A DNA stretch of 64,000 nt from Diprion similis (Eukaryota; Arthropoda; Insecta; Hymenoptera; Diprionidae). Shown in pieces: positions 11,769 to 37,010 of this stretch; the first letter of the stretch is position 1; each line of letters begins with the position of its first letter. The stretch covers positions 10,485,501 to 10,549,500 of the forward strand of contig NC_060106.1 in NCBI RefSeq assembly GCF_021155765.1, written 5' to 3'. A model generated the notes under the pieces. That model saw only the letters and a program-made list of their open reading frames with translations, was not told the DNA's origin and ran no database searches. Both the position numbers and the translations under genes were made by a program.

Positions 11769-12107
11769 ATGACCCTTACTAGACTAATTGGGTGCCCAGG
11801 AACTCAGAAAACGCAAGAAAAAAAGCGTAGGACCAACAGCGGAGAAATTACGACGCAAATAGCAGCAGAAAAATTGAGAAAATACGTCTTCCGTTTTTTG
11901 GCTGTAACTTTTGATCCGTTGCTCGCAGCGCATTCGGACTGCGATCAATCGATTTCTCTCGCAAAATTACGTCGGAATAGTGCCTGAAAGAATTTATTGC
12001 AGCACTTTTCAGAATCGTCGAAATTTTCGCAAAAAATCCAAAGGGGTTAACCTTCTTTTTTTGGTCATTTTTGGAGACGAGAAATTTTCGTCTCGGAATC
12101 GATTTGT
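11769..12107. repeat. Single 339-bp monomer (3-bp deletion)
   Basis: This is the only unit of different length. Three bases are missing in the CAAATACCAGCAGCAG stretch near 11,860, where it reads CAAATAGCAGCAG. Slippage in the CAG-like triplets of that segment is the obvious cause. The same copy also carries TTGGAGACGAGAAATTTTC near its end instead of TTGGAGCCGAGAATTTTTC. Confidence 0.97.
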
Positions 12108-13817: not shown

Positions 13818-16800
13818 ATGACCCTTACTAGACTAATTGGGTGCCCAGGAACTCAGAAAACGCAAGAAAAAAAGCGTAGGACCAACAGCGGAGAAATTAC
13901 GACGCAAATACCAGCAGCAGAAAAATTGAGAAAATACGTCTTCCGTTTTTTGTCTGTAACTTTTGATCCGTTGCTCGCAGCGCATTCGGACTGCGATCAA
14001 TCGATTTCTATCGCAAAATTACGTCGAAATAGTGCCTGAAAGAATTTATTGCAGCACTTTTCAGAATCGTCGAAATTTTCGCAAAAAATCCAAAGGGGTT
14101 AACCTTCCTTTTTTGGTCATTTTTGGAGCCGAGAATTTTTCGTCTCGGAATCGATTTGTATGACCCTTACTAGACTAATTGGGTGCCCAGGAACTCAGAA
14201 AACGCAAGAAAAAAAGCGTAGGACCAACAGCGGAGAAATTACGACGCAAATACCAGCAGCAGAAAAATTGAGAAAATACGTCTTCCGTTTTTTGTCTGTA
14301 ACTTTTGATCCGTTGCTCGCAGCGCATTCGGACTGCGATCAATCGATTTCTCTCGCAAAATTACGTCGGAATAGTGCCTGAAATAATTTATTGCAGCACT
14401 TTTCAGAATCGTCGAAATTTTCGCAAAAAATCCAAAGGGGTTAACCTTCCTTTTTTGGTCATTTTTGGAGCCGAGAATTTTTCGTCTCGGAATCGATTTG
14501 TATGACCCTTACTAGACTAATTGGGTGCCCAGGAACTCAGAAAACGCAAGAAAAAAAGCGTAGGACCAACAGCAGAGAAATTACGACGCAAATACCAGCA
14601 GCAGAAAAATTGAGAAAATACGTCTTCCGTTTTTTGGCTGTAACTTTTGATCCGTTGCTCGCAGCGCATTCGGACTGCGATCAATCGATTTCTCTCGCAA
14701 AATTACGTCGGAATAGTGCCTGAAAGAATTTATTGCAGCACTTTTCAGAATCGTCGAAATTTTCGCAAAAAATCCAAAGGGGTTAACCTTCCTTTTTTGG
14801 TCATTTTTGGAGCCGAGAACTTTTCGTCTCGGAATCGATTTGTATGACCCTTACTAGACTAATTGGGTGCCCAGGAACTCAGAAAACGCAAGAAAAAAAG
14901 CGTAGGACCAACAGCAGAGAAATTACGACGCAAATACCAGCAGCAGAAAAATTGAGAAAATACGTCTTCCGTTTTTTGGCTGTAACTTTTGATCCGTTGC
15001 TCGCAGCGCATTCGGACTGCGATCAATCGATTTCTCTCGCAAAATTACGTCGAAATAGTGCCTGAAAGAATTTATTGCAGCACTTTTCAGAATCGTCGAA
15101 ATTTTCGCAAAAAATCCAAAGGGGTTAACCTTCCTTTTTTGGTCATTTTTGGAGCCGAGAATTTTTCGTCTCGGAATCGATTTCTATGACCCTTACTAGA
15201 CTAATTGGGTGCCCAGGAACTCAGAAAACGCAAGAAAAAAAGCGTAGGACCAACAGCGGAGAAATTACGACGCAAATACCAGCAGCAGAAAAATTGAGAA
15301 AATACGTCTTCCGTTTTTTGGCTGTAACTTTTGATCCGTTGCTCGCAGCGCATTCGGACTGCGATCAATCGATTTCTCTCGCAAAATTACGTCGGAATAG
15401 TGCCTGAAAGAATTTATTGCAGCACTTTTCAGAATCGTCGAAATTTTCGCAAAAAATCCAAAGGGGTTAACCTTCCTTTTTTGGTCATTTTTGGAGCCGA
15501 GAATTTTTCGTCTCGGAATCGATTTGTATGACCCTTACTAGACTAATTGGGTGCCCAGGAACTCAGAAAACGCAAGAAAAAAAGCGTAGGACCAACAGCA
15601 GAGAAATTACGATGCAAATACCAGCAGCAGAAAAATTGAGAAAATACGTCTTCCGTTTTTTGGCTGTAACTTTTGATCCGTTGCTCGCAGCGCATTCGGA
15701 TTGCGATCAATCGATTTCTCTCGCAAAATTACGTCGGAATAGTGCCTGAAAGAATTTATTGCAGCACTTTTCAGAATCGTCGAAATTTTCGCAAAAAATC
15801 CAAAGGGGTTAACCTTCCTTTTTTGGTCATTTTTGGAGCCGAGAATTTTTCGTCTCGGAATCGATTTGTATGACCCTTACTAGACTAATTGGGTGCCCAG
15901 GAACTCAGAAAACGCAAGAAAAAAAGCGTAGGACCAACAGCAGAGAAATTACGACGCAAATACCAGCAGCTGAAAAATTGAGAAAATACGTCTTCCGTTT
16001 TTTGGCTGTAACTTTTGATCCGTTGCTCGCAGCGCATTCGGACTGCGATCAATCGATTTCTCTCGCAAAATTACGTCGGAATAGTGCCTGAAATAATTTA
16101 TTGCAGCACTTTTCAGAATCGTCGAAATTTTCGCAAAAAATCCAAAGGGGTTAACCTTCCTTTTTTGGTCATTTTTGGAGCCGAGAATTTTCCGTCTCGG
16201 AATCGATTTCTATGACCCTTACTAGACTAATTGGGTGCCCAGGAACTCAGAAAACGCAAGAAAAAAAGCGTAGGACCAACAGCAGAGAAATTACGACGCA
16301 AATACCAGCAGCAGAAAAATTGAGAAAATACGTCTTCCGTTTTTTGGCTGTAACTTTTGATCCGTTGCTCGCAGCGCATTCGGACTGCGATCAATCGATT
16401 TCTCTCGCAAAATTACGTCGGAATAGTGCCTGAAAGAATTTATTGCAGCACTTTTCAGAATCGTCGAAATTTTCGCAAAAAATCCAAAGGGGTTAACCTT
16501 CCTTTTTTGGTCATTTTTGGAGCCGAGAATTTTTCGTCTCGGAATCGATTTCTATGACCCTTACTAGACTAATTGGGTGCCCAGGAACTCAGAAAACGCA
16601 AGAAAAAAAGCGTAGGACCAACAGCAGAGAAATTACGACGCAAATACCAGCAGCAGAAAAATTGAGAAAATACGTCTTCGATTTTTTGGCTGTAACTTTT
16701 GATCCGTTGCTCGCAGCGCATTCGGACTGCGATCAATCGATTTCTCTCGCAAAATTACGTCGGAATAGTGCCTGAAAGAATTTATTGCAGCACTTTTCAG

Positions 16801-16895
16801 AATCGTCGAAATTTTCGCAAAAAATCCAAAGGGGTTAGCCTTCCTTTTTTGGTCATTTTTGGAGGCGAGAATTTTTCGTCTCGGAATCGATTTGT
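13818..16895. repeat. 9-monomer (3,078-bp) higher-order unit, copy 1
   Basis: Nine monomers carry rare markers that recur 3,078 bp downstream. They are GATTTCTATCGC near 14,004 and 17,082, CTGAAATAATTT near 14,380 and 17,458, GAGAACTTTTCG near 14,816 and 17,894, and ACGATGCAAATA near 15,609 and 18,687. The last two to three monomers of this copy do not match the end of the second copy, so the duplication boundary or a later exchange lies near 15,870. Confidence 0.85.
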
Positions 16896-19800
16896 ATGAC
16901 CCTTACTAGACTAATTGGTTGCCCAGGAACTCAGAAAACGCAAGAAAAAAAGCGTAGGACCAACAGCGGAGAAATTACGACGCAAATACCAGCAGCAGAA
17001 AAATTGAGAAAATACGTCTTCCGTTTTTTGTCTGTAACTTTTGATCCGTTGCTCGCAGCGCATTCGGACTGCGATCAATCGATTTCTATCGCAAAATTAC
17101 GTCGAAATAGTGCCTGAAAGAATTTATTGCAGCACTTTTCAGAATCGTCGAAATTTTCGCAAAAAATCCAAAGGGGTTAACCTTCCTTTTTTGGTCATTT
17201 TTGGAGCCGAGAATTTTTCGTCTCGGAATCGATTTGTATGACCCTTACTAGACTAATTGGGTGCCCAGGAACTCAGAAAACGCAAGAAAAAAAGCGTAGG
17301 ACCAACAGCGGAGAAATTACGACGCAAATACCAGCAGCAGAAAAATTGAGAAAATACGTCTTCCGTTTTTTGTCTGTAACTTTTGATCCGTTGCTCGCAG
17401 CGCATTCGGACTGCGATCAATCGATTTCTCTCGCAAAATTACGTCGGAATAGTGCCTGAAATAATTTATTGCAGCACTTTTCAGAATCGTCGAAATTTTC
17501 GCAAAAAATCCAAAGGGGTTAACCTTCCTTTTTTGGTCATTTTTGGAGCCGAGAATTTTTCGTCTCGGAATCGATTTGTATGACCCTTACTAGACTAATT
17601 GGGTGCCCAGGAACTCAGAAAACGCAAGAAAAAAAGCGTAGGACCAACAGCAGAGAAATTACGACGCAAATACCAGCAGCAGAAAAATTGAGAAAATACG
17701 TCTTCCGTTTTTTGGCTGTAACTTTTGATCCGTTGCTCGCAGCGCATTCGGACTGCGATCAATCGATTTCTCTCGCAAAATTACGTCGGAATAGTGCCTG
17801 AAAGAATTTATTGCAGCACTTTTCAGAATCGTCGAAATTTTCGCAAAAAATCCAAAGGGGTTAACCTTCCTTTTTTGGTCATTTTTGGAGCCGAGAACTT
17901 TTCGTCTCGGAATCGATTTGTATGACCCTTACTAGACTAATTGGGTGCCCAGGAACTCAGAAAACGCAAGAAAAAAAGCGTAGGACCAACAGCAGAGAAA
18001 TTACGACGCAAATACCAGCAGCAGAAAAATTGAGAAAATACGTCTTCCGTTTTTTGGCTGTAACTTTTGATCCGTTGCTCGCAGCGCATTCGGACTGCGA
18101 TCAATCGATTTCTCTCGCAAAATTACGTCGAAATAGTGCCTGAAAGAATTTATTGCAGCACTTTTCAGAATCGTCGAAATTTTCGCAAAAAATCCAAAGG
18201 GGTTAACCTTCCTTTTTTGGTCATTTTTGGAGCCGAGAATTTTTCGTCTCGGAATCGATTTCTATGACCCTTACTAGACTAATTGGGTGCCCAGGAACTC
18301 AGAAAACGCAAGAAAAAAAGCGTAGGACCAACAGCGGAGAAATTACGACGCAAATACCAGCAGCAGAAAAATTGAGAAAATACGTCTTCCGTTTTTTGGC
18401 TGTAACTTTTGATCCGTTGCTCGCAGCGCATTCGGACTGCGATCAATCGATTTCTCTCGCAAAATTACGTCGGAATAGTGCCTGAAAGAATTTATTGCAG
18501 CACTTTTCAGAATCGTCGAAATTTTCGCAAAAAATCCAAAGGGGTTAACCTTCCTTTTTTGGTCATTTTTGGAGCCGAGAATTTTTCGTCTCGGAATCGA
18601 TTTGTATGACCCTTACTAGACTAATTGGGTGCCCAGGAACTCAGAAAACGCAAGAAAAAAAGCGTAGGACCAACAGCAGAGAAATTACGATGCAAATACC
18701 AGCAGCTGAAAAATTGAGAAAATACGTCTTCCGTTTTTTGGCTGTAACTTTTGATCCGTTGCTCGCAGCGCATTCGGATTGCGATCAATCGATTTCTCTC
18801 GCAAAATTACGTCGGAATAGTGCCTGAAAGAATTTATTGCAGCACTTTTCAGAATCGTCGAAATTTTCGCAAAAAATCCAAAGGGGTTAACCTTCCTTTT
18901 TTGGTCATTTTTGGAGCCGAGAATTTTTCGTCTCGGAATCGATTTGTATGACCCTTACTAGACTAATTGGGTGCCCAGGAACTCAGAAAACGCAAGAAAA
19001 AAAGCGTAGGACCAACAGCAGAGAAATTACGACGCAAAAACCAGCAGCAGAAAAATTGAGAAAATACGTCTTCCGTTTTTTGGCTGTAACTTTTGATCCG
19101 TTGCTCGCAGCGCATTCGGATTGCGATCAATCGATTTCTCTCGCAAAATTACGTCGGAATAGTGCCTGAAAGAATTTATTGCAGCACTTTTCAGAATCGT
19201 CGAAATTTTCGCAAAAAATCCAAAGGGGTTAACCTTCCTTTTTTGGTCATTTTTGGAGCCGAGAATTTTTCGTCTCGGAATCGATTTGTATGACCCTTAC
19301 TAGACTAATTGGGTGCCCAGGAACTCAGAAAACGCAAGAAAAAAAGCGTAGGACCAACAGCAGAGAAATTACGACGCAAATACCAGCAGCAGAAAAATTG
19401 AGAAAATACGTCTTCCGTTTTTTGGCTGTAACTTTTGATCCGTTGCTCGCAGCGCATTCGGACTGCGATCAATCGATTTCTCTCGCAAAATTACGTCGGA
19501 ATAGTGCCTGAAAGAATTTATTGCAGCACTTTTCAGAATCGTCGAAATTTTCGCAAAAAATCCAAAGGGGTTAACCTTCCTTTTTTGGTCATTTTTGGAG
19601 CCGAGAACTTTTCGTCTCGGAATCGATTTCTATGACCCTTACTAGACTAATTGGGTGCCCAGGAACTCAGAAAACGCAAGAAAAAAAGCGTAGGACCAAC
19701 AGCAGAGAAATTACGACGCAAATACCAGCGGCAGAAAAATTGAGAAAATACGTCTTCCGTTTTTTGGCTGTAACTTTTGATCCGTTGCTCGCAGCGCATT

Positions 19801-19973
19801 CGGACTGCGATCAATCGATTTCTCTCGCAAAATTACGTCGAAATAGTGCCTGAAAGAATTTATTGCAGCACTTTTCAGAATCGTCGAAATTTTCGCAAAA
19901 AATCCAAAGGGGTTAACCTTCCTTTTTTGGTCATTTTTGGAGCCGAGAATTTTTCGTCTCGGAATCAATTTCT
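16896..19973. repeat. 9-monomer higher-order unit, copy 2 (3' part replaced)
   Basis: The first six monomers match those beginning at 13,818 in order and in private variants. From about 18,948 the succession changes to monomers that match the 12-monomer family found from 24,762 on. This copy therefore looks like a junction between two higher-order families, as expected from unequal exchange. Its first monomers are also matched by those beginning at 21,684 (14 monomers further), including the shared TTGGTTGCCCAGG change. Confidence 0.8.
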
Positions 19974-20999
19974 ATGACCCTTACTAGACTAATTGGGTGC
20001 CCAGGAACTCAGAAAACGCAAGAAAAAAAGCGTAGGACCAACAGCAGAGAAATTACGACGCAAATACCAGCAGCAGAAAAATTGAGAAAATACGTCTTCC
20101 GTTTTTTGGCTGTAACTCTTGATCCGTTGCTCGCAGCGCATTCGGACTGCGATCAATCGATTTCTCTCGCAAAATTACGTCGAAATAGTGCCTGAAAGAA
20201 TGTATTGCAGCACTTTTCAGAATCGTCGAAATTTTCGCAAAAAATCCAAAGGGGTTAACCTTCCTTTTTTGGTCATTTTTGGAGCCGAGAATTTTTCGTC
20301 TCGGAATCAATTTCTATGACCCTTACTAGACTAATTGGGTGCCCAGGAACTCAGAAAACGCAAGAAAAAAAGCGTAGGACCAACAGCAGAGAAATTACGA
20401 CGCAAATACCAGCAGCAGAAAAATTGAGAAAATACGTCTTCCGTTTTTTGGCTGTAACTTTTGATCCGTTGCTCGCAGCGCATTCGGACTGCGATCAATC
20501 GATTTCTCTCGCAAAATTACGTCGAAATAGTGCCTGAAAGAATTTATTGCAGCACTTTTCAGAATCGTCGAAATTTTCGCAAAAAATCCAAAGGGGTTAA
20601 CCTTCCTTTTTTGGTCATTTTTGGAGCCGAGAATTTTTCGTCTCGGAATCGATTTCTATGACCCTTACTAGACTAATTGGGTGCCCAGGAACTCAGAAAA
20701 CGCAAGAAAAAAAGCGTAGGACCAACAGCGGAGAAATTACGACGCAAATACCAGCGGCAGAAAAATTGAGAAAATACGTCTTCCGTTTTTTGGCTGTAAC
20801 TTTTGATCCGTTGCTCGCAGCGCATTCGGACTGCGATCAATCGATTTCTCTCGCAAAATTACGTCGAAATAGTGCCTGAAAGAATTTATTGCAGCACTTT
20901 TCAGAATCGTCGAAATTTTCGCAAAAAATCCAAAGGGGTTAACCTTCCTTTTTTGGTCATTTTTGGAGCCGAGAATTTTTCGTCTCGGAATCAATTTCT
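18948..20999. repeat. Early partial copy (monomers 2-7) of the 12-monomer unit
   Basis: Six monomers run in the same order as those starting at 24,762: CAAAAACCAGC, then GAGAACTTTTCG, then CCAGCGGCAG with GGAATCAATT, then TAACTCTTGATCC with AGAATGTATTGC, then GTCGAAATAG, then AGCGGAG with CCAGCGGCAG. The displacement is 5,814 bp, 17 monomers. Confidence 0.8.
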
Positions 21000-23900
21000 A
21001 TGACCCTTACTAGACCAATTGGGTGCCCAGGAACTCAGAAAACGCAAGAAAAAAAGCGTAGGACCAACAGCAGAGAAATTACGACGCAAATACCAGCAGC
21101 AGAAAAATTGAGAAAATACGTCTTCCGTTTTTTGGCTGTAACTTTTGATCCGTTGCTCGCAGCGCATTCGGACTGCGATCAATCGATTTCTCTCGCAAAA
21201 TTACGTCGGAATAGTGCCTGAAAGAATTTATTGCAGCACTTTTCAGAATCGTCGAAATTTTCGCAAAAAATCCAAAGGGGTTAACCTTCCTTTTTTGGTC
21301 ATTTTTGGAGCCGAGAATTTTTCGTCTCGGAATCGATTTCTATGACCCTTACTAGACTAATTGGGTGCCCAGGAACTCAGAAAACGCAAGAAAAAAAGCG
21401 TAGGACCAACAGCAGAGAAATTACGACGCAAATACCAGCAGCAGAAAAATTGAGAAAATACGTCTTCGATTTTTTGGCTGTAACTTTTGATCCGTTGCTC
21501 GCAGCGCATTCGGACTGCGATCAATCGATTTCTCTCGCAAAATTACGTCGGAATAGTGCCTGAAAGAATTTATTGCAGCACTTTTCAGAATCGTCGAAAT
21601 TTTCGCAAAAAATCCAAAGGGGTTAGCCTTCCTTTTTTGGTCATTTTTGGAGGCGAGAATTTTTCGTCTCGGAATCGATTTGTATGACCCTTACTAGACT
21701 AATTGGTTGCCCAGGAACTCAGAAAACGCAAGAAAAAAAGCGTAGGACCAACAGCGGAGAAATTACGACGCAAATACCAGCAGCAGAAAAATTGAGAAAA
21801 TACGTCTTCCGTTTTTTGTCTGTAACTTTTGATCCGTTGCTCGCAGCGCATTCGGACTGCGATCAATCGATTTCTCTCGCAAAATTACGTCGAAATAGTG
21901 CCTGAAAGAATTTATTGCAGCACTTTTCAGAATCGTCGAAATTTTCGCAAAAAATCCAAAGGGGTTAACCTTCCTTTTTTGGTCATTTTTGGAGCCGAGA
22001 ATTTTTCGTCTCGGAATCGATTTGTATGACCCTTACTAGACTAATTGGGTGCCCAGGAACTCAGAAAACGCAAGAAGAAAAGCGTAGGACCAACAGCGGA
22101 GAAATTACGACGCAAATACCAGCAGCAGAAAAATTGAGAAAATACGTCTTCCGTTTTTTGTCTGTAACTTTTGATCCGTTGCTCGCAGCGCATTCGGACT
22201 GCGATCAATCGATTTCTCTCGCAAAATTACGTCGGAATAGTGCCTGAAATAATTTATTGCAGCACTTTTCAGAATCGTCGAAATTTTCGCAAAAAATCCA
22301 AAGGGGTTAACCTTCCTTTTTTGGTCATTTTTGGAGCCGAGAATTTTTCGTCTCGGAATCGATTTGTATGACCCTTACTAGACTAATTGGGTGCCCAGGA
22401 ACTCAGAAAACGCAAGAAAAAAAGCGTAGGACCAACAGCAGAGAAATTACGACGCAAAAACCAGCAGCAGAAAAATTGAGAAAATACGTCTTCCGTTTTT
22501 TGGCTGTAACTTTTGATCCGTTGCTCGCGGCGCATTCGGATTGCGATCAATCGATTCCTCTCGCAAAATTACGTCGGAATAGTGCCTGAAAGAATTTATT
22601 GCAGCACTTTTCAGAATCGTCGAAATTTTCGCAAAAAATCCAAAGGGGTTAACCTTCCTTTTTTGGTCATTTTTGGAGCCGAGAATTTTTCGTCTCGGAA
22701 TCGATTTGTATGACCCTTACTAGACTAATTGGGTGCCCAGGAACTCAGAAAACGCAAGAAAAATAGCGTAGGACCAACAGCAGAGAAATTACGACGCAAA
22801 TACCAGCAGCAGAAAAATTGAGAAAATACGTCTTCCGTTTTTTGGCTGTAACTTTTGATCCGTTGCTCGCAGCGCATTCGGACTGCGATCAATCGATTTC
22901 TCTCGCAAAATTACGTCGGAATAGTGCCTGAAAGAATTTATTGCAGCACTTTTCAGAATCGTCGAAATTTTCGCAAAAAATCCAAAGGGGTTAACCTTCC
23001 TTTTTTGGTCATTTTTGGAGCCGAGAATTTTTCGTCTCGGAATCGATTTGTATGACCCTTACTAGACTAATTGGGTGCCCAGGAACTCAGAAAACGCAAG
23101 AAAAAAAGCGTAGGACCAACAGCAGAGAAATTACGACGCAAATACCAGCAGCAGAAAAATTGAGAAAATACGTCTTCCGTTTTTTGGCTGTAACTTTTGA
23201 TCCGTTGCTCGCAGCGCATTCGGACTGCGATCAATCGATTTCTCTCGCAAAATTACGTCGGAATAGTGCCTGAAATAATTTATTGCAGCACTTTTCAGAA
23301 TCGTCGAAATTTTCGCAAAAAATCCAAAGGGGTTAACCTTCCTTTTTTGGTCATTTTTGGAGCCGAGAATTTTCCGTCTCGGAATCGATTTCTATGACCC
23401 TTACTAGACTAATTGGGTGCCCAGGAACTCAGAAAACGCAAGAAAAAAAGCGTAGGACCAACAGCAGAGAAATTACGACGCAAATACCAGCAGCAGAAAA
23501 ATTGAGAAAATACGTCTTCCGTTTTTTGGCTGTAACTTTTGATCCGTTGCTCGCAGCGCATTCGGACTGCGATCAATCGATTTCTCTCGCAAAATTACGT
23601 CGGAATAGTGCCTGAAAGAATTTATTGCAGCACTTTTCAGAATCGTCGAAATTTTCGCAAAAAATCCAAAGGGGTTAACCTTCCTTTTTTGGTCATTTTT
23701 GGAGCCGAGAATTTTTCGTCTCGGAATCGATTTCTATGACCCTTACTAGACTAATTGGGTGCCCAGGAACTCAGAAAACGCAAGAAAAAAAGCGTAGGAC
23801 CAACAGCAGAGAAATTACGACGCAAATACCAGCAGCAGAAAAATTGAGAAAATACGTCTTCCGTTTTTTGGCTGTCACTTTTGATCCGTTGCTCGCAGCG

Positions 23901-24419
23901 CATTCGGACTGCGATCAATCGATTTCTCTCGCAAAATTACGTCGGAATAGTGCCTGAAAGAATTTATTGCAGCACTTTTCAGAATCGTCGAAATTTTCGC
24001 AAAAAATCCAAAGGGGTTAACCTTCCTTTTTTGGTCATTTTTGGAGGCGAGAATTTTTCGTCTCGGAATCGATTTGTATGACCCTTACTAGACTAATTGG
24101 TTGCCCAGGAACTCAGAAAACGCAAGAAAAAAAGCGTAGGACCAACAGCGGAGAAATCACGACGCAAACACCAGCAGCAGAAAAATTGAGAAAATTCGTC
24201 TTCCGTTTTTTGTCTGTAACTTTTGATCCGTTGCTCGCAGCGCATTCGGACTGCGATCAATCGATTTCTCTCGCAAAATTACGTCGAAATAGTGCCTGAA
24301 AGAATTTATTGCAGCACTTTTCAGAATCGTCGAAATTTTCGCAAAAAATCCAAAGGGGTTAACCTTCCTTTTTTGGTCATTTTTGGAGCCGAGAATTTTT
24401 CGTCTCGGAATCGATTTCT

Positions 24420-27400
24420 ATGACCCTTACTAGACTAATTGGGTGCCCAGGAACTCAGAAAACGCAAGAAAAAAAGCGTAGGAGCAACAGCAGAGAAATT
24501 ACGACGCAAATACCAGCAGCAGAAAAATTGAGAAAATACGTCTTCCGTTTTTTGGCTGTAACTTTTGATCCGTTGCTCGCAGCGCATTCGGACTGCGATC
24601 AATCGATTTCTCTCGCAAAATTACGTCGGAATAGTGCCTGAAAGAATTTATTGCAGCACTTTTCAGAATCGTCGAAATTTTCGCAAAAAATCCAAAGGGG
24701 TTAACCTTCCTTTTTTGGTCATTTTTGGAGCCGAGAATTTTTCGTCTCGGAATCGATTTGTATGACCCTTACTAGACTAATTGGGTGCCCAGGAACTCAG
24801 AAAACGCAAGAAAAAAAGCGTAGGACCAACAGCAGAGAAATTACGACGCAAAAACCAGCAGCAGAAAAATTGAGAAAATACGTCTTCCGTTTTTTGGCTG
24901 TAACTTTTGATCCGTTGCTCGCAGCGCATTCGGATTGCGATCAATCGATTTCTCTCGCAAAATTACGTCGGAATAGTGCCTGAAAGAATTTATTGCAGCA
25001 CTTTTCAGAATCGTCGAAATTTTCGCAAAAAATCCAAAGGGGTTAACCTTCCTTTTTTGGTCATTTTTGGAGCCGAGAATTTTTCGTCTCGGAATCGATT
25101 TGTATGACCCTTACTAGACTAATTGGGTGCCCAGGAACTCAGAAAACGCAAGAAAAAAAGCGTAGGACCAACAGCAGAGAAATTACGACGCAAATACCAG
25201 CAGCAGAAAAATTGAGAAAATACGTCTTCCGTTTTTTGGCTGTAACTTTTGATCCGTTGCTCGCAGCGCATTCGGACTGCGATCAATCGATTTCTCTCGC
25301 AAAATTACGTCGGAATAGTGCCTGAAAGAATTTATTGCAGCACTTTTCAGAATCGTCGAAATTTTCGCAAAAAATCCAAAGGGGTTAACCTTCCTTTTTT
25401 GGTCATTTTTGGAGCCGAGAACTTTTCGTCTCGGAATCGATTTCTATGACCCTTACTAGACTAATTGGGTGCCCAGGAACTCAGAAAACGCAAGAAAAAA
25501 AGCGTAGGACCAACAGCAGAGAAATTACGACGCAAATACCAGCGGCAGAAAAATTGAGAAAATACGTCTTCCGTTTTTTGGCTGTAACTTTTGATCCGTT
25601 GCTCGCAGCGCATTCGGACTGCGATCAATCGATTTCTCTCGCAAAATTACGTCGAAATAGTGCCTGAAAGAATTTATTGCAGCACTTTTCAGAATCGTCG
25701 AAATTTTCGCAAAAAATCCAAAGGGGTTAACCTTCCTTTTTTGGTCATTTTTGGAGCCGAGAATTTTTCGTCTCGGAATCAATTTCTATGACCCTTACTA
25801 GACTAATTGGGTGCCCAGGAACTCAGAAAACGCAAGAAAAAAAGCGTAGGACCAACAGCAGAGAAATTACGACGCAAATACCAGCAGCAGAAAAATTGAG
25901 AAAATACGTCTTCCGTTTTTTGGCTGTAACTCTTGATCCGTTGCTCGCAGCGCATTCGGACTGCGATCAATCGATTTCTCTCGCAAAATTACGTCGAAAT
26001 AGTGCCTGAAAGAATGTATTGCAGCACTTTTCAGAATCGTCGAAATTTTCGCAAAAAATCCAAAGGGGTTAACCTTCCTTTTTTGGTCATTTTTGGAGCC
26101 GAGAATTTTTCGTCTCGGAATCAATTTCTATGACCCTTACTAGACTAATTGGGTGCCCAGGAACTCAGAAAACGCAAGAAAAAAAGCGTAGGACCAACAG
26201 CAGAGAAATTACGACGCAAATACCAGCAGCAGAAAAATTGAGAAAATACGTCTTCCGTTTTTTGGCTGTAACTTTTGATCCGTTGCTCGCAGCGCATTCG
26301 GACTGCGATCAATCGATTTCTCTCGCAAAATTACGTCGAAATAGTGCCTGAAAGAATTTATTGCAGCACTTTTCAGAATCGTCGAAATTTTCGCAAAAAA
26401 TCCAAAGGGGTTAACCTTCCTTTTTTGGTCATTTTTGGAGCCGAGAATTTTTCGTCTCGGAATCGATTTCTATGACCCTTACTAGACTAATTGGGTGCCC
26501 AGGAACTCAGAAAACGCAAGAAAAAAAGCGTAGGACCAACAGCGGAGAAATTACGACGCAAATACCAGCGGCAGAAAAATTGAGAAAATACGTCTTCCGT
26601 TTTTTGGCTGTAACTTTTGATCCGTTGCTCGCAGCGCATTCGGACTGCGATCAATCGATTTCTCTCGCAAAATTACGTCGAAATAGTGCCTGAAAGAATT
26701 TATTGCAGCACTTTTCAGAATCGTCGAAATTTTCGCAAAAAATCCAAAGGGGTTAACCTTCCTTTTTTGGTCATTTTTGGAGCCGAGAATTTTTCGTCTC
26801 GGAATCAATTTCTATGACCCTTACTAGACTAATTGGGTGCCCAGGAACTCAGAAAACGCAAGAAAAAAAGCGTAGGACCAACAGCAGAGAAATTACGACG
26901 CAAATACCAGCAGCAGAAAAATTGAGAAAATACGTCTTCCGTTTTTTGGCTGTAACTCTTGATCCGTTGCTCGCAGCGCATTCGGACTGCGATCAATCGA
27001 TTTCTCTCGCAAAATTACGTCGAAATAGTGCCTGAAAGAATTTATTGCAGCACTTTTCAGAATCGTCGAAATTTTCGCAAAAAATCCAAAGGGGTTAACC
27101 TTCCTTTTTTGGTCATTTTTGGAGCCGAGAATTTTTCGTCTCGGAATCAATTTCTATGACCCTTACTAGACTAATTGGGTGCCCAGGAACTCAGAAAACG
27201 CAAGAAAAAAAGCGTAGGACCAACAGCAGAGAAATTACGACGCAAATACCAGCAGCAGAAAAATTGAGAAAATACGTCTTCCGTTTTTTGGCTGTAACTT
27301 TTGATCCGTTGCTCGCAGCGCATTCGGACTGCGATCAATCGATTTCTCTCGCAAAATTACGTCGAAATAGTGCCTGAAAGAATTTATTGCAGCACTTTTC

Positions 27401-28523
27401 AGAATCGTCGAAATTTTCGCAAAAAATCCAAAGGGGTTAACCTTCCTTTTTTGGTCATTTTTGGAGCCGAGAATTTTTCGTCTCGGAATCGATTTCTATG
27501 ACCCTTACTAGACTAATTGGGTGCCCAGGAACTCAGAAAACGCAAGAAAAAAAGCGTAGGACCAACAGCGGAGAAATTACGACGCAAATACCAGCGGCAG
27601 AAAAATTGAGAAAATACGTCTTCCGTTTTTTGGCTGTAACTTTTGATCCGTTGCTCGCAGCGCATTCGGACTGCGATCAATCGATTTCTCTCGCAAAATT
27701 ACGTCGGAATAGTGCCTGAAAGAATTTATTGCAGCACTTTTCAGAATCGTCGAAATTTTCGCAAAAAATCCAAAGGGGTTAACCTTCCTTTTTTGGTCAT
27801 TTTTGGAGCCGAGAATTTTTCGTCTCGGAATCGATTTGTATGACCCTTACTAGACTAATTGGGTGCCCAGGAACTCAGAAAACGCAAGAAAAAAAGCGTA
27901 GGACCAACAGCGGAGAAATTACGACGCAAAAACCAGCAGCAGAAAAATTGAGAAAATACGTCTTCCGTTTTTTGGCTGTAACTTTTGATCCGTTGCTCGC
28001 AGCGCATTCGGACTGCGATCAATCGATTTCTCTCGCAAAATTACGTCGGAATAGTGCCTGAAAGAATTTATTGCAGCACTTTTCAGAATCGTCGAAATTT
28101 TCGCAAAAAATCCAAAGGGGTTAACCTTCCTTTTTTGGTCATTTTTGGAGCCGAGAATTTTTCGTCTCGGAATCGATTTCTATGACCCTTACTAGACTAA
28201 TTGGGTGCCCAGGAACTCAGAAAACGCAAGAAAAAAAGCGTAGGACCAACAGCGGAGAAATTACGACGCAAATACCAGCAGCAGAAAAATTGAGAAAATA
28301 CGTCTTCCGTTTTTTGTCTGTAACTTTTGATCCGTTGCTCGCAGCGCATTCGGACTGCGATCAATCGATTTCTCTCGCAAAATTACGTCGGAATAGTGCC
28401 TGAAAGAATTTATTGCAGCACTTTTCAGAATCGTCGAAATTTTCGCAAAAAATCCAAAGGGGTTAACCTTCCTTTTTTGGTCATTTTTGGAGCCGAGAAT
28501 TTTTCGTCTCGGAATCGATTTCT
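24420..28523. repeat. 12-monomer (4,104-bp) higher-order unit, copy 1
   Basis: The unit opens with a private GTAGGAGCAACAG variant (near 24,480), which recurs exactly 4,104 bp later (near 28,584) and again 4,104 bp after that (near 32,688). Monomer order by marker: 1 GGAGCAAC; 2 CAAAAACC with TTCGGAT; 3 GAGAACTTTTC; 4 CAGCGGCAG with GAATCAATT; 5 TAACTCTTG with AATGTATTG; 6 GTCGAAATAG; 7 AGCGGAG with CAGCGGCAG; 8 TAACTCTTG; 9 GTCGAAATAG; 10 AGCGGAG; 11 AGCGGAG with CAAAAACC; 12 AGCGGAG with TTTTGTCTG. Confidence 0.9.
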
Positions 28524-31500
28524 ATGACCCTTACTAGACTAATTGGGTGCCCAGGAACTCAGAAAACGCAAGAAAAAAAGCGTAGGAGCAACAGCAGAGA
28601 AATTACGACGCAAATACCAGCAGCAGAAAAATTGAGAAAATACGTCTTCCGTTTTTTGGCTGTAACTTTTGATCCGTTGCTCGCAGCGCATTCGGACTGC
28701 GATCAATCGATTTCTCTCGCAAAATTACGTCGGAATAGTGCCTGAAAGAATTTATTGCAGCACTTTTCAGAATCGTCGAAATTTTCGCAAAAAATCCAAA
28801 GGGGTTAACCTTCCTTTTTTGGTCATTTTTGGAGCCGAGAATTTTTCGTCTCGGAATCGATTTGTATGACCCTTACTAGACTAATTGGGTGCCCAGGAAC
28901 TCAGAAAACGCAAGAAAAAAAGCGTAGGACCAACAGCAGAGAAATTACGACGCAAAAACCAGCAGCAGAAAAATTGAGAAAATACGTCTTCCGTTTTTTG
29001 GCTGTAACTTTTGATCCGTTGCTCGCAGCGCATTCGGATTGCGATCAATCGATTTCTCTCGCAAAATTACGTCGGAATAGTGCCTGAAAGAATTTATTGC
29101 AGCACTTTTCAGAATCGTCGAAATTTTCGCAAAAAATCCAAAGGGGTTAACCTTCCTTTTTTGGTCATTTTTGGAGCCGAGAATTTTTCGTCTCGGAATC
29201 GATTTGTATGACCCTTACTAGACTAATTGGGTGCCCAGGAACTCAGAAAACGCAAGAAAAAAAGCGTAGGACCAACAGCAGAGAAATTACGACGCAAATA
29301 CCAGCGGCAGAAAAATTGAGAAAATACGTCTTCCGTTTTTTGGCTGTAACTTTTGATCCGTTGCTCGCAGCGCATTCGGACTGCGATCAATCGATTTCTC
29401 TCGCAAAATTACGTCGAAATAGTGCCTGAAAGAATTTATTGCAGCACTTTTCAGAATCGTCGAAATTTTCGCAAAAAATCCAAAGGGGTTAACCTTCCTT
29501 TTTTGGTCATTTTTGGAGCCGAGAATTTTTCGTCTCGGAATCAATTTCTATGACCCTTACTAGACTAATTGGGTGCCCAGGAACTCAGAAAACGCAAGAA
29601 AAAAAGCGTAGGACCAACAGCAGAGAAATTACGACGCAAATACCAGCAGCAGAAAAATTGAGAAAATACGTCTTCCGTTTTTTGGCTGTAACTCTTGATC
29701 CGTTGCTCGCAGCGCATTCGGACTGCGATCAATCGATTTCTCTCGCAAAATTACGTCGAAATAGTGCCTGAAAGAATGTATTGCAGCACTTTTCAGAATC
29801 GTCGAAATTTTCGCAAAAAATCCAAAGGGGTTAACCTTCCTTTTTTGGTCATTTTTGGAGCCGAGAATTTTTCGTCTCGGAATCAATTTCTATGACCCTT
29901 ACTAGACTAATTGGGTGCCCAGGAACTCAGAAAACGCAAGAAAAAAAGCGTAGGACCAACAGCAGAGAAATTACGACGCAAATACCAGCAGCAGAAAAAT
30001 TGAGAAAATACGTCTTCCGTTTTTTGGCTGTAACTTTTGATCCGTTGCTCGCAGCGCATTCGGACTGCGATCAATCGATTTCTCTCGCAAAATTACGTCG
30101 AAATAGTGCCTGAAAGAATTTATTGCAGCACTTTTCAGAATCGTCGAAATTTTCGCAAAAAATCCAAAGGGGTTAACCTTCCTTTTTTGGTCATTTTTGG
30201 AGCCGAGAATTTTTCGTCTCGGAATCGATTTCTATGACCCTTACTAGACTAATTGGGTGCCCAGGAACTCAGAAAACGCAAGAAAAAAAGCGTAGGACCA
30301 ACAGCGGAGAAATTACGACGCAAATACCAGCGGCAGAAAAATTGAGAAAATACGTCTTCCGTTTTTTGGCTGTAACTTTTGATCCGTTGCTCGCAGCGCA
30401 TTCGGACTGCGATCAATCGATTTCTCTCGCAAAATTACGTCGAAATAGTGCCTGAAAGAATTTATTGCAGCACTTTTCAGAATCGTCGAAATTTTCGCAA
30501 AAAATCCAAAGGGGTTAACCTTCCTTTTTTGGTCATTTTTGGAGCCGAGAATTTTTCGTCTCGGAATCAATTTCTATGACCCTTACTAGACTAATTGGGT
30601 GCCCAGGAACTCAGAAAACGCAAGAAAAAAAGCGTAGGACCAACAGCAGAGAAATTACGACGCAAATACCAGCAGCAGAAAAATTGAGAAAATACGTCTT
30701 CCGTTTTTTGGCTGTAACTCTTGATCCGTTGCTCGCAGCGCATTCGGACTGCGATCAATCGATTTCTCTCGCAAAATTACGTCGAAATAGTGCCTGAAAG
30801 AATTTATTGCAGCACTTTTCAGAATCGTCGAAATTTTCGCAAAAAATCCAAAGGGGTTAACCTTCCTTTTTTGGTCATTTTTGGAGCCGAGAATTTTTCG
30901 TCTCGGAATCAATTTCTATGACCCTTACTAGACTAATTGGGTGCCCAGGAACTCAGAAAACGCAAGAAAAAAAGCGTAGGACCAACAGCAGAGAAATTAC
31001 GACGCAAATACCAGCAGCAGAAAAATTGAGAAAATACGTCTTCCGTTTTTTGGCTGTAACTCTTGATCCGTTGCTCGCAGCGCATTCGGACTGCGATCAA
31101 TCGATTTCTCTCGCAAAATTACGTCGAAATAGTGCCTGAAAGAATTTATTGCAGCACTTTTCAGAATCGTCGAAATTTTCGCAAAAAATCCAAAGGGGTT
31201 AACCTTCCTTTTTTGGTCATTTTTGGAGCCGAGAATTTTTCGTCTCGGAATCAATTTCTATGACCCTTACTAGACTAATTGGGTGCCCAGGAACTCAGAA
31301 AACGCAAGAAAAAAAGCGTAGGACCAACAGCAGAGAAATTACGACGCAAATACCAGCAGCAGAAAAATTGAGAAAATACGTCTTCCGTTTTTTGGCTGTA
31401 ACTTTTGATCCGTTGCTCGCAGCGCATTCGGACTGCGATCAATCGATTTCTCTCGCAAAATTACGTCGAAATAGTGCCTGAAAGAATTTATTGCAGCACT

Positions 31501-32627
31501 TTTCAGAATCGTCGAAATTTTCGCAAAAAATCCAAAGGGGTTAACCTTCCTTTTTTGGTCATTTTTGGAGCCGAGAATTTTTCGTCTCGGAATCGATTTC
31601 TATGACCCTTACTAGACTAATTGGGTGCCCAGGAACTCAGAAAACGCAAGAAAAAAAGCGTAGGACCAACAGCGGAGAAATTACGACGCAAATACCAGCG
31701 GCAGAAAAATTGAGAAAATACGTCTTCCGTTTTTCGGCTGTAACTTTTGATCCGTTGCTCGCAGCGCATTCGGACTGCGATCAATCGATTTCTCTCGCAA
31801 AATTACGTCGGAATAGTGCCTGAAAGAATTTATTGCAGCACTTTTCAGAATCGTCGAAATTTTCGCAAAAAATCCAAAGGGGTTAACCTTCCTTTTTTGG
31901 TCATTTTTGGAGCCGAGAATTTTTCGTCTCGGAATCGATTTGTATGACCCTTACTAGACTAATTGGGTGCCCAGGAACTCAGAAAACGCAAGAAAAAAAG
32001 CGTAGGACCAACAGCGGAGAAATTACGACGCAAAAACCAGCAGCAGAAAAATTGAGAAAATACGTCTTCCGTTTTTTGGCTGTAACTTTTGATCCGTTGC
32101 TCGCAGCGCATTCGGACTGCGATCAATCGATTTCTCTCGCAAAATTACGTCGGAATAGTGCCTGAAAGAATTTATTGCAGCACTTTTCAGAATCGTCGAA
32201 ATTTTCGCAAAAAATCCAAAGGGGTTAACCTTCCTTTTTTGGTCATTTTTGGAGCCGAGAATTTTTCGTCTCGGAATCGATTTCTATGACCCTTACTAGA
32301 CTAATTGGGTGCCCAGGAACTCAGAAAACGCAAGAAAAAAAGCGTAGGACCAACAGCGGAGAAATTACGACGCAAATACCAGCAGCAGAAAAATTGAGAA
32401 AATACGTCTTCCGTTTTTTGTCTGTAACTTTTGATCCGTTGCTCGCAGCGCATTCGGACTGCGATCAATCGATTTCTCTCGCAAAATTACGTCGGAATAG
32501 TGCCTGAAAGAATTTATTGCAGCACTTTTCAGAATCGTCGAAATTTTCGCAAAAAATCCAAAGGGGTTAACCTTCCTTTTTTGGTCATTTTTGGAGCCGA
32601 GAATTTTTCGTCTCGGAATCGATTTCT
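28524..32627. repeat. 12-monomer higher-order unit, copy 2 (one monomer lost, one gained)
   Basis: Still 12 monomers long, but not monomer for monomer the same as copy 1. Monomers 3 and 4 are fused into one hybrid starting at 29,208, and monomer 8 is present twice (30,576 and 30,918). Order is otherwise kept, ending with the AGCGGAG/CAAAAACC and TTTTGTCTG monomers at 31,944 and 32,286. One private change, TTTTTCGGCTG near 31,733, marks monomer 10. Confidence 0.9.
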
Positions 32628-35600
32628 ATGACCCTTACTAGACTAATTGGGTGCCCAGGAACTCAGAAAACGCAAGAAAAAAAGCGTAGGAGCAACAGCA
32701 GAGAAATTACGACGCAAATACCAGCAGCAGAAAAATTGAGAAAATACGTCTTCCGTTTTTTGGCTGTAACTTTTGATCCGTTGCTCGCAGCGCATTCGGA
32801 CTGCGATCAATCGATTTCTCTCGCAAAATTACGTCGGAATAGTGCCTGAAAGAATTTATTGCAGCACTTTTCAGAATCGTCGAAATTTTCGCAAAAAATC
32901 CAAAGGGGTTAACCTTCCTTTTTTGGTCATTTTTGGAGCCGAGAATTTTTCGTCTCGGAATCGATTTGTATGACCCTTACTAGACTAATTGGGTGCCCAG
33001 GAACTCAGAAAACGCAAGAAAAAAAGCGTAGGACCAACAGCAGAGAAATTACGACGCAAAAACCAGCAGCAGAAAAATTGAGAAAATACGTCTTCCGTTT
33101 TTTGGCTGTAACTTTTGATCCGTTGCTCGCAGCGCATTCGGATTGCGATCAATCGATTTCTCTCGCAAAATTACGTCGGAATAGTGCCTGAAAGAATTTA
33201 TTGCAGCACTTTTCAGAATCGTCGAAATTTTCGCAAAAAATCCAAAGGGGTTAACCTTCCTTTTTTGGTCATTTTTGGAGCCGAGAATTTTTCGTCTCGG
33301 AATCGATTTGTATGACCCTTACTAGACTAATTGGGTGCCCAGGAACTCAGAAAACGCAAGAAAAAAAGCGTAGGACCAACAGCAGAGAAATTACGACGCA
33401 AATACCAGCAGCAGAAAAATTGAGAAAATACGTCTTCCGTTTTTTGGCTGTAACTTTTGATCCGTTGCTCGCAGCGCATTCGGACTGCGATCAATCGATT
33501 TCTCTCGCAAAATTACGTCGGAATAGTGCCTGAAAGAATTTATTGCAGCACTTTTCAGAATCGTCGAAATTTTCGCAAAAAATCCAAAGGGGTTAACCTT
33601 CCTTTTTTGGTCATTTTTGGAGCCGAGAACTTTTCGTCTCGGAATCGATTTCTATGACCCTTACTAGACTAATTGGGTGCCCAGGAACTCAGAAAACGCA
33701 AGAAAAAAAGCGTAGGACCAACAGCAGAGAAATTACGACGCAAATACCAGCGGCAGAAAAATTGAGAAAATACGTCTTCCGTTTTTTGGCTGTAACTTTT
33801 GATCCGTTGCTCGCAGCGCATTCGGACTGCGATCAATCGATTTCTCTCGCAAAATTACGTCGAAATAGTGCCTGAAAGAATTTATTGCAGCACTTTTCAG
33901 AATCGTCGAAATTTTCGCAAAAAATCCAAAGGGGTTAACCTTCCTTTTTTGGTCATTTTTGGAGCCGAGAATTTTTCGTCTCGGAATCAATTTCTATGAC
34001 CCTTACTAGACTAATTGGGTGCCCAGGAACTCAGAAAACGCAAGAAAAAAAGCGTAGGACCAACAGCAGAGAAATTACGACGCAAATACCAGCAGCAGAA
34101 AAATTGAGAAAATACGTCTTCCGTTTTTTGGCTGTAACTCTTGATCCGTTGCTCGCAGCGCATTCGGACTGCGATCAATCGATTTCTCTCGCAAAATTAC
34201 GTCGAAATAGTGCCTGAAAGAATGTATTGCAGCACTTTTCAGAATCGTCGAAATTTTCGCAAAAAATCCAAAGGGGTTAACCTTCCTTTTTTGGTCATTT
34301 TTGGAGCCGAGAATTTTTCGTCTCGGAATCAATTTCTACGACCCTTACTAGACTAATTGGGTGCCCAGGAACTCAGAAAACGCAAGAAAAAAAGCGTAGG
34401 ACCAACAGCAGAGAAATTACGACGCAAATACCAGCAGCAGAAAAATTGAGAAAATACGTCTTCCGTTTTTTGGCTGTAACTTTTGATCCGTTGCTCGCAG
34501 CGCATTCGGACTGCGATCAATCGATTTCTCTCGCAAAATTACGTCGAAATAGTGCCTGAAAGAATTTATTGCAGCACTTTTCAGAATCGTCGAAATTTTC
34601 GCAAAAAATCCAAAGGGGTTAACCTTCCTTTTTTGGTCATTTTTGGAGCCGAGAATTTTTCGTCTCGGAATCGATTTCTATGACCCTTACTAGACTAATT
34701 GGGTGCCCAGGAACTCAGAAAACGCAAGAAAAAAAGCGTAGGACCAACAGCGGAGAAATTACGACGCAAATACCAGCGGCAGAAAAATTGAGAAAATACG
34801 TCTTCCGTTTTTTGGCTGTAACTTTTGATCCGTTGCTCGCAGCGCATTCGGACTGCGATCAATCGATTTCTCTCGCAAAATTACGTCGAAATAGTGCCTG
34901 AAAGAATTTATTGCAGCACTTTTCAGAATCGTCGAAATTTTCGCAAAAAATCCAAAGGGGTTAACCTTCCTTTTTTGGTCATTTTTGGAGCCGAGAATTT
35001 TTCGTCTCGGAATCAATTTCTATGACCCTTACTAGACTAATTGGGTGCCCAGGAACTCAGAAAACGCAAGAAAAAAAGCGTAGGACCAACAGCAGAGAAA
35101 TTACGACGCAAATACCAGCAGCAGAAAAATTGAGAAAATACGTCTTCCGTTTTTTGGCTGTAACTCTTGATCCGTTGCTCGCAGCGCATTCGGACTGCGA
35201 TCAATCGATTTCTCTCGCAAAATTACGTCGAAATAGTGCCTGAAAGAATTTATTGCAGCACTTTTCAGAATCGTCGAAATTTTCGCAAAAAATCCAAAGG
35301 GGTTAACCTTCCTTTTTTGGTCATTTTTGGAGCCGAGAATTTTTCGTCTCGGAATCGATTTGTATGACCCTTACTAGACTAATTGGGTGCCCAGGAACTC
35401 AGAAAACGCAAGAAAAAAAGCGTAGGACCAACAGCGGAGAAATTACGACGCAAAAACCAGCAGCAGAAAAATTGAGAAAATACGTCTTCCGTTTTTTGGC
35501 TGTAACTTTTGATCCGTTGCTCGCAGCGCATTCGGACTGCGATCAATCGATTTCTCTCGCAAAATTACGTCGGAATAGTGCCTGAAAGAATTTATTGCAG

Positions 35601-36047
35601 CACTTTTCAGAATCGTCGAAATTTTCGCAAAAAATCCAAAGGGGTTAACCTTCCTTTTTTGGTCATTTTTGGAGCCGAGAATTTTTCGTCTCGGAATCGA
35701 TTTCTATGACCCTTACTAGACTAATTGGGTGCCCAGGAACTCAGAAAACGCAAGAAAAAAAGCGTAGGACCAACAGCGGAGAAATTACGACGCAAATACC
35801 AGCAGCAGAAAAATTGAGAAAATACGTCTTCCGTTTTTTGTCTGTAACTTTTGATCCGTTGCTCGCAGCGCATTCGGACTGCGATCAATCGATTTCTCTC
35901 GCAAAATTACGTCGGAATAGTGCCTGAAAGAATTTATTGCAGCACTTTTCAGAATCGTCGAAATTTTCGCAAAAAATCCAAAGGGGTTAACCTTCCTTTT
36001 TTGGTCATTTTTGGAGCCGAGAATTTTTCGTCTCGGAATCGATTTGT
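32628..36047. repeat. 12-monomer higher-order unit, copy 3, shortened to 10
   Basis: Monomers 1-8 follow copy 1 including the separate monomers 3 and 4. Then the order jumps from monomer 8 (35,022) to monomers 11 and 12 (35,364 and 35,706), so 9 and 10 are lost and 35,022 has a hybrid right end (GTATGACC). The monomer at 34,338 has CTACGACCC in place of CTATGACCC. After this block come two generic monomers (36,048 and 36,390), and then the array ends. Confidence 0.88.
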
Positions 36048-36655
36048 ATGACCCTTACTAGACTAATTGGGTGCCCAGGAACTCAGAAAACGCAAGAAAA
36101 AAAGCGTAGGACCAACAGCAGAGAAATTACGACGCAAATACCAGCAGCAGAAAAATTGAGAAAATACGTCTTCCGTTTTTTGGCTGTAACTTTTGATCCG
36201 TTGCTCGCAGCGCATTCGGACTGCGATCAATCGATTTCTCTCGCAAAATTACGTCGGAATAGTGCCTGAAAGAATTTATTGCAGCACTTTTCAGAATCGT
36301 CGAAATTTTCGCAAAAAATCCAAAGGGGTTAACCTTCCTTTTTTGGTCATTTTTGGAGCCGAGAATTTTTCGTCTCGGAATCGATTTGTATGACCCTTAC
36401 TAGACTAATTGGGTGCCCAGGAACTCAGAAAACGCAAGAAAAAAAGCGTAGGACCAACAGCAGAGAAATTACGACGCAAATACCAGCAGCAGAAAAATTG
36501 AGAAAATACGTCTTCCGTTTTTTGGCTGTAACTTTTGATCCGTTGCTCGCAGCGCATTCGGACTGCGATCAATCGATTTCTCTCGCAAAATTACGTCGGA
36601 ATAGTGCCTGAAAGAATTTATTGCAGCACTTTTCAGAATCGTCGAAATTTTCGCA

Positions 36656-37010
36656 ACAAATCCAAAGAGGTTAATCTTACTTATTTGTTGGGTCGAAAAT
36701 CTTATGTCAAGGAATCGATTCGTATGATCCTATTTACCCCTCGGAAAGCGAAAAGACACTAAGAACAACACACGATCAACAATTGACGCAACATGCCTAG
36801 GCTTTCGAGTTTCTGGCTGTTTTTTCCAATCTGCTGAACACAGCCTTACGAGGACCTTCAGACTGTTTTCAATCACTTTTTGTTCACAGAATCTCGTTTA
36901 TCTAACCTATTTTGACTTTGCCCATGCTTGGTTAGTGGAAAAACTCAGGATAACAAGAAGCGAAGAAATAACAATACAATCTCGAGTGCCAATGAATACA
37001 CGTCTTTTTT
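36656..37010. repeat. Degenerate satellite monomers at the array edge
   Basis: Similarity drops abruptly at about 36,655 but does not vanish. GGTTAATCTTACTTATTTG parallels the consensus GGTTAACCTTCCTTTTTTG, AAGGAATCGATTCGTATGAT parallels TCGGAATCGATTTGTATGAC, and TTTCTGGCTGTTTTTTCC parallels the TTTTTTGGCTGTAAC segment. Near 36,858, TTCAGACTGTTTTCAATCAC parallels TTCGGACTGCGATCAATCGA. A second stretch from about 36,930 (AAAAACTCAGGATAACAAG) parallels GGAACTCAGAAAACGCAAG. So roughly one and a half old, diverged monomers with internal deletions border the homogeneous array. Confidence 0.75.

What the first reader, a model, noticed from the sequence alone, without database searches (positions are those of the whole stretch)
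24420..36047. Three successive 12-monomer (4,104-bp) higher-order units with visible monomer gain and loss
A private GTAGGAGCAACAG marker recurs exactly every 4,104 bp. Copy 2 lost one monomer (a 3/4 hybrid at 29,208) and gained one (monomer 8 doubled), keeping 12. Copy 3 lost two (8/10 hybrid at 35,022). The hybrids give near-direct snapshots of unequal crossing-over within a higher-order repeat. This level of organisation is best known from primate alpha satellite and has been reported less often in insects.
Basis: seen in the sequence. Interest (0 to 1): 0.7.

Follow-up and report, generated by a model that had tools for sequence, protein, structure and literature searches.

The report
Local higher-order repeat in satellite DNA
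A 342-base satellite DNA repeat has copied a 12-unit block of itself three times in a row, and the copies show recent unit losses and gains, a clean example of a well-known process rather than something new.

Summary
A 342-bp satellite fills window 1-36,687. The marker sits at 24,478, 28,582 and 32,686 (spacing 4,104); a 30-mer around it has only these 3 exact hits in the 269-Mb genome. Copy 1 has 12 monomers, copy 2 has 12 (type 3 missing, type 8 doubled), copy 3 has 10 (8/10 hybrid). Same-position monomers differ by 0.05%, others by 1.17%; lag-12 order: 0 of 10,000 shuffles.

Corrections. Monomer 29,208 is identical to type 4, so a "3/4 hybrid" cannot be shown; only 35,022 is a resolved hybrid (junction within about 125 bp). 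Copy 2's loss and gain fit two exchanges, or one out-of-register conversion tract of 1.4-1.9 kb that keeps 12 by necessity. A partial fourth copy lies at 18,948-20,999. The 12-mer is not array-wide; other block sizes occur in the same array and in all five array samples tested, from two satellite families (block test).

So: a young, local higher-order repeat in a satellite array, made by homologous exchange between misaligned monomers. Insect higher-order repeats are in print. New member of a known kind.

The parts
1..36687 (+). 342-bp satellite array (the array begins about 4.8 kb before the window; total about 41.6 kb)
   Evidence: TRF period 342, 107.3 copies; left edge in L011
18948..20999 (+). 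partial upstream copy of the same higher-order unit, types 2,3,4,5,6,7; exact identity to copy 1 runs 2,236 bp (18,780-21,015 vs 24,594-26,829)
24288..24419 (+). tail of the preceding monomer that already belongs to the lag-12 periodic stretch
   Evidence: lag-12 and lag-24 identity begin at 24,288
24420..28523 (+). higher-order copy 1: monomers 1-12 (4,104 bp)
25446..27497 (+). inner 3-monomer duplication inside the unit: 4-5-6 and 7-8-9 differ at 2 of 1,026 bases
28524..32627 (+). higher-order copy 2: 1,2,4,5,6,7,8,8,9,10,11,12 (4,104 bp)
29206..31061 (+). out-of-register tract in copy 2: matches copy 1 at lag 11. Left switch lies in 29,206-29,305, right switch in 30,720-31,061 (tract 1,415-1,855 bp)
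32628..36047 (+). higher-order copy 3: 1-7, 8/10 hybrid, 11, 12 (3,420 bp; lag periodicity ends at 36,045)
35231..35356 (+). junction of the 684-bp loss inside hybrid monomer 35,022 (type 8 to the left, type 10 to the right)
   Evidence: lag-24 identity to 35,356, lag-22 identity from 35,232
13818..18947 (+). a different block duplication, lag 9 (13,818-15,869 vs 16,896-18,947, six monomers, 2 differences)
16554..22367 (+). a different block duplication, lag 14 (16,554-17,579 vs 21,342-22,367, three monomers, 2 differences)

Best explanation
This is a young, local higher-order repeat inside an ordinary non-coding satellite array. Shown: 342-bp monomers, three successive units of 12, 12 and 10 monomers, a partial unit upstream, differences between units only in whole monomers plus a few bases, and one resolved hybrid monomer. 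Inferred: a 3-monomer block (4-5-6) was first duplicated to give 7-8-9. The 12-monomer block was then copied in tandem by homologous exchange between misaligned monomers, most likely between sister chromatids. Copy 3 later lost 684 bp by exchange between monomers 8 and 10. Copy 2 was altered either by two one-monomer exchanges or by one conversion tract taken from a template shifted by one monomer. The array itself probably has no sequence-coded function beyond heterochromatin; the blocks are by-products of repair and recombination in tandem DNA.
For: Marker three times in the window and, as a 30-mer, nowhere else in the genome. Same-position monomers 0.05% apart (30 pairs) against 1.17% for different positions (498 pairs). 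0 of 10,000 shuffles at lag 12. Structural differences between units are exact multiples of 342 bp with seamless joints, as homologous exchange predicts. Junction of the 8/10 hybrid inside about 125 bp of shared sequence. Monomer 3 is present in copy 1, copy 3 and the upstream partial copy, so copy 2 is the derived one. Block duplications of other sizes in 5 of 5 array samples from two satellite families, the window's included (block test at the 95% level of 100 shuffles each). Outermost monomers of the array are degenerate on both sides, the usual sign that homogenisation works in the interior (recalled).
Against: One haplotype of one assembly; no reads could be inspected, so collapse or expansion by the assembler is not excluded. 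Type signatures rest on few bases (1-4 per monomer), types 6 and 9 are identical, and alignment column 341 is so variable (48 G, 58 C of 106) that it may recur. Crossover, conversion, replication slippage and break-induced replication leave the same products here. The lag-mean test is not significant for the whole window array nor for the two other 342-bp arrays. No branch of the monomer tree is strongly supported.
Confidence: 0.88

Rival explanations
1. Copy 2 arose by one out-of-register gene conversion: a tract of 1.4-1.9 kb was copied from a unit shifted by one monomer, replacing positions 3-7 by types 4-8. No length change, one event. (A rival only for the mechanism of copy 2.)
For: A single lag-11 block of 1,855 identical bases with lag-12 identity on both sides; unit length exactly conserved. 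Conversion between sister chromatids or over long tracts is invoked for other tandem arrays (passages of PMC11062924 and PMC12400953).
Against: Two independent one-monomer exchanges give the same sequence; with one haplotype nothing separates them.
Confidence: 0.5
2. Two separate unequal crossovers (or slippage events) in copy 2: loss of monomer 3, gain of a second monomer 8.
For: One-monomer steps are the simplest exchange; copy 3 shows a loss without a gain, so length-changing events do happen here.
Against: Needs two events that cancel exactly within one unit.
Confidence: 0.45
3. Assembly artefact: the assembler duplicated or mis-joined a single 12-monomer block.
For: Satellite arrays are the hardest parts to assemble (recalled); copy 1 and copy 3 are nearly identical (1 mismatch from 24,288 to 27,148).
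Against: The three units differ in structure and by private bases (27,631 vs 31,735 and 26,131 vs 34,339), no N in the window, non-satellite sequence reached on both sides, and similar blocks occur in other arrays.
Confidence: 0.06
4. The array is a functional centromere whose higher-order repeats are under selection or drive, as proposed for human alpha satellite.
For: Some 342-bp-family places lie near mid-contig (C1 9.9 of 18.1 Mb; C2 10.1-11.7 of 22.8 Mb).
Against: Other places of the family lie off-centre (C8 1.7-7.0 of 28.0 Mb). Array only about 41.6 kb, with an ORF matching WD repeats about 1 kb beyond its end. A second, 279-bp satellite has more exact-pattern hits (1,841, against 301 and 176 for two 342-family patterns; patterns differ in length, so the comparison is rough) and fills the first 10 kb of two contigs. 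No CENP-B-box core in one monomer of each family.
Confidence: 0.08

Closest known systems
Higher-order repeats of primate alpha satellite
   Same: Blocks of diverged monomers re-amplified as a unit; same-position monomers far more alike than neighbours (passages of PMC5615363 and PMC8122249); monomer-deletion variants with hybrid monomers (recalled).
   Different: Monomer 342, not 171 bp, and no half-monomer similarity (best internal identity 33%). Three units and a partial one, not array-wide. Monomers 1.2% apart, against 10-30% in alpha satellite. No CENP-B-box core in the one monomer scanned.
Satellite higher-order repeats in the Drosophila ananassae subgroup (PMC11917152, passages seen)
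   Same: Insect satellites with monomers of 99-411 bp organised in higher-order repeats in pericentromeric domains.
   Different: Those stretches reach 2 Mb; this array is about 41.6 kb and its place relative to the centromere is unknown. Host not identified here.
Beetle higher-order repeats: Tribolium castaneum and Chrysolina (PMC10218199, PMC5615363, PMC8122249, PMC7598501, passages seen)
   Same: Insect satellites, some of similar monomer length (TCAST 360 bp), with higher-order units.
   Different: The units in those passages are mostly dimers or trimers, or complex mixtures with foreign sequence; here 12 same-family monomers, all head to tail.
Local, variable-size higher-order blocks of Arabidopsis CEN178 arrays (recalled; one search returned one paper, on another plant, listing seen only)
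   Same: Many short-range block duplications of varied size instead of one array-wide unit.
   Different: Plant centromere core; size and location differ.

Membership tests
Higher-order repeat (general definition) | Same-position monomers of successive units much more alike than monomers of different position | tested here: met
   0.05% vs 1.17% (30 and 498 pairs among 33 monomers; hybrid 35,022 left out)
Higher-order repeat (general definition) | Unit repeated in tandem, more than chance order would give | tested here: met
   3 units; lag 12: 0 of 10,000 shuffles of the 34 monomers
Higher-order repeat as in human centromeres | Unit homogenised across most of the array | tested here: not met
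   12-mer periodicity confined to 24,288-36,045 of about 41.6 kb; whole-array lag-12 mean 4.54 is well above the 1% null minimum of 2.60
Primate alpha satellite | 171-bp related monomer | tested here: not met
   342-bp monomer without a 171-bp sub-repeat; no sequence comparison with alpha satellite was run
Primate alpha satellite | CENP-B box in part of the monomers | tested here: not met
   core TTCGNNNNANNCGGG (recalled) absent on both strands of the one 342-bp monomer scanned
Centromeric satellite | Bound by CENH3 | not testable with these tools
   needs ChIP or CUT&Tag
A published satellite with this monomer | Monomer sequence in print | tested here: inconclusive
   five pieces of 14-22 bases (three of the 342-bp, two of the 279-bp monomer) found in 0 papers of the held library; no sequence database of eukaryotes was available to search

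The most novel reading that the evidence does not exclude
Copy 2 records a single, out-of-register gene-conversion tract of 1.4-1.9 kb in a satellite, and such conversion, not unequal crossover, is the main writer of monomer order in this genome's satellites. Arrays would then be reshuffled without changing length.
Probability: 0.2. Interest if true: 0.45.

Novelty: new member of a known kind. Interest (0 to 1): 0.22.

Why it matters
Nothing here changes the picture of satellite evolution. It is a compact and readable case: three units young enough that each later change can be placed to within about 100-340 bases. It makes one question testable at this locus, namely whether satellite arrays change by length-changing crossover or by length-neutral conversion: a long-read survey of copy 2 in a few dozen haplotypes would decide it.

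Tried and rejected
Rejected: relation of the 342-bp monomer to a 171-bp dimer (best internal identity 33%); a known structured RNA in 24,000-64,000 (Rfam, 0 matches at gathering threshold); CENP-B-box core in one monomer of each family. A piece shared by the 342-bp and 279-bp monomers (18 of 19 bases) is only modestly above chance (2 of 1,000 shuffles reach it). In the 342-bp array it is less conserved than the median stretch (94 of 106 monomers exact); in the 279-bp arrays its 16-base core is exact in 5 of about 36 monomers of L026 and 32 of about 36 of L027. It was not made part of the mechanism. A fixed exchange site in the monomer: the left switch of copy 2 (monomer positions up to 98) and the copy-3 junction (about 210-335) do not overlap; the right switch of copy 2 is a whole monomer long and says nothing. 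Naming the host: Pfam SDP_N had no match, but no control rang, so this says nothing. A literature search for the monomer length in insects listed 2 papers, judged not pertinent from titles and abstract starts. My first split of the two other 342-bp arrays missed many monomers and was replaced, where monomers that could not be cut cleanly were left out. Two right-edge rows (36,390 and 36,732) of 108 were dropped before counting because they run into the degenerate edge and the flank; hybrid 35,022 was left out of the pair counts.

Full report
Setting. The window is C2:10,485,501-10,549,500 of a 269-Mb genome in 60 contigs. A 342-bp satellite fills window 1-36,687 and starts about 4.8 kb before the window, so the array is about 41.6 kb, in one orientation. 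Beyond 36.7 kb the sequence is not a satellite array; it holds an ORF with WD-repeat matches at 37,689-38,072 (-) and a G-patch ORF at 59,202-59,669 (+). No N occurs in the window. Contigs C1, C2 and C3 begin with CCTAA repeats, the TTAGG telomere of many arthropods (the taxonomic reading is recalled).

The observation. The marker GTAGGAGCAACAG lies at 24,478, 28,582 and 32,686, exactly 4,104 bp apart. A 30-mer around it occurs 3 times in the whole genome, at these places. Shared variants give copy 1 = 1-12, copy 2 = 1,2,4,5,6,7,8,8,9,10,11,12, copy 3 = 1-7, 8/10, 11, 12. Lag-12 and lag-24 mean differences are 1.91 and 0.80 per monomer against 3.76 for all pairs of the 34 monomers, and 0 of 10,000 order shuffles reach the lag-12 value. 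Same-type pairs differ by 0.049% (30 pairs), different-type pairs by 1.17% (498 pairs). 28 of 33 monomers have only same-type nearest neighbours; the five others are of types 6 and 9, which are identical in sequence. On a tree of the 34 monomers (15 distinct rows) the type labels need 11 changes, the minimum for 12 labels, though 0 of 12 inner branches is strongly supported.

Corrections to the observation. First, monomer 29,208 is identical to type 4. Base-level comparison puts the change of register between 29,206 and 29,305, so the monomer may carry up to about 98 bases of type 3 or none. 'Hybrid' cannot be shown there. Second, the hybrid at 35,022 is real: lag-24 identity with copy 1 runs to 35,356 and lag-22 identity starts at 35,232, so the junction lies within about 125 bp. 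Third, the periodic stretch is 24,288-36,045. Fourth, six monomers at 18,948-20,999 equal types 2-7 with no difference; exact identity to copy 1 runs for 2,236 bp. This partial copy contains monomer 3, so copy 2 is the derived state. Fifth, inside the unit 4-5-6 and 7-8-9 differ at 2 of 1,026 bases, a nested three-monomer duplication.

How it works. The structural changes are whole multiples of 342 bp and the joints are seamless, which points to homologous exchange between misaligned monomers (inference). For copy 3 a loss of 684 bp between monomers 8 and 10 is enough. For copy 2 two readings give the same letters. Either monomer 3 was lost and monomer 8 was doubled in two exchanges, or one conversion tract of 1,415-1,855 bp from a template shifted by one monomer replaced positions 3-7 by types 4-8. 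In the second reading the length stays 12 by necessity and not by coincidence. The lag-11 block in copy 2 is one run of 1,855 identical bases with lag-12 identity on both sides. I weigh the two about equally; only population haplotypes can decide.

How special it is. A block search with shuffled order as null (300 shuffles) found nine lags above the 95% level in the 106 window monomers: 24, 17, 11, 41, 14, 12, 9, 28, 13. Those at 9 and 14 are independent of the 12-mer. I sampled parts of two other 342-bp arrays (C2 about 11.66-11.68 Mb, 67 monomers; C8 about 4.72-4.74 Mb, 57 monomers) and the first 10 kb of two arrays of an unlike 279-bp satellite at the starts of contigs C8 and C12 (35 monomers each). 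All five samples, the window's array included, hold at least one block above the 95% null level (100 shuffles each): in the four others lags 7, 3 and 4; 17 and 2; 5 and 10; 15. Against this, the simpler lag-mean test at the 1% level is passed only by the two 279-bp samples and not by the two other 342-bp samples nor by the whole window array. So the 12-mer is one local block among many of different sizes, not an array-wide unit. Other places of the 342-bp family lie on C1, C2, C4, C6, C8, C10 and C11, some of them single exact hits (first 100 of 160 places listed; first 100 of 301). For the 279-bp family one exact 35-mer has 1,841 hits; the first 100 listed all lie at C3:17.61-17.70 Mb of 19.01 Mb, and the first 10 kb of C8 and of C12 are made of it. 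That makes it the better candidate for a main centromeric satellite, which was not tested.

Comparison. The structure meets the definition of a higher-order repeat but not the array-wide homogenisation of human alpha satellite. Insect higher-order repeats are in print: D. ananassae subgroup with 99-411-bp monomers (PMC11917152, passages), T. castaneum dimers (PMC10218199, passages) and TCAST-containing units (PMC7598501, passages), Chrysolina dimers and trimers (PMC8122249, passages), beetles in general (PMC5615363, passages), and T. madens (PMC13081366, passages). Nematode satellites with higher-order repeats and shared short motifs are described in PMC3694981 (abstract and outline seen). Sister-chromatid or long-tract conversion beside crossover is discussed for human centromeres (PMC11062924, passages) and the Drosophila histone array (PMC12400953, passages). 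I did not find the monomer in print (main texts of the held library only).

Verdict. The finding is true, careful and essentially ordinary: a new example of a known kind of structure, with one detail (copy 2) that is open between two mechanisms.

Noticed in passing
L026 (C8:1-10,000) and L027 (C12:1-10,000): A 279-bp satellite fills these contig starts, in lag-5 and lag-15 higher-order blocks; one exact 35-mer of it has 1,841 hits genome-wide, the first 100 listed at C3:17.61-17.70 Mb.
   Followed up: partly
window monomers, about position 98 of each; L026, L027: The 342-bp and 279-bp monomers share a piece matching at 18 of 19 bases (CAGCAGAAAAATTGAG core) although otherwise unlike; 2 of 1,000 shuffles match as well.
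   Followed up: partly
G000:C6:5,870,756-5,884,450: A relative of the 342-bp array whose exact-pattern spacings (654, 1,338, 1,650, 2,022) suggest a mixture of 342-bp and 312-bp monomers.
   Followed up: no
window 1-11,700: The left part of the array is more homogeneous, with recurring variant pairs and a faint three-monomer rhythm (lag 3 lowest of 27 lags).
   Followed up: no
window 11,705-12,386: The only spacing change between 103 anchor sites of the window's array: one 3-bp loss (681 instead of 684).
   Followed up: no
window 40,469-42,153 (-): ORF pieces that look like naked cuticle (Nkd) exons by eye (recalled); no Pfam match for these three ORFs.
   Followed up: partly
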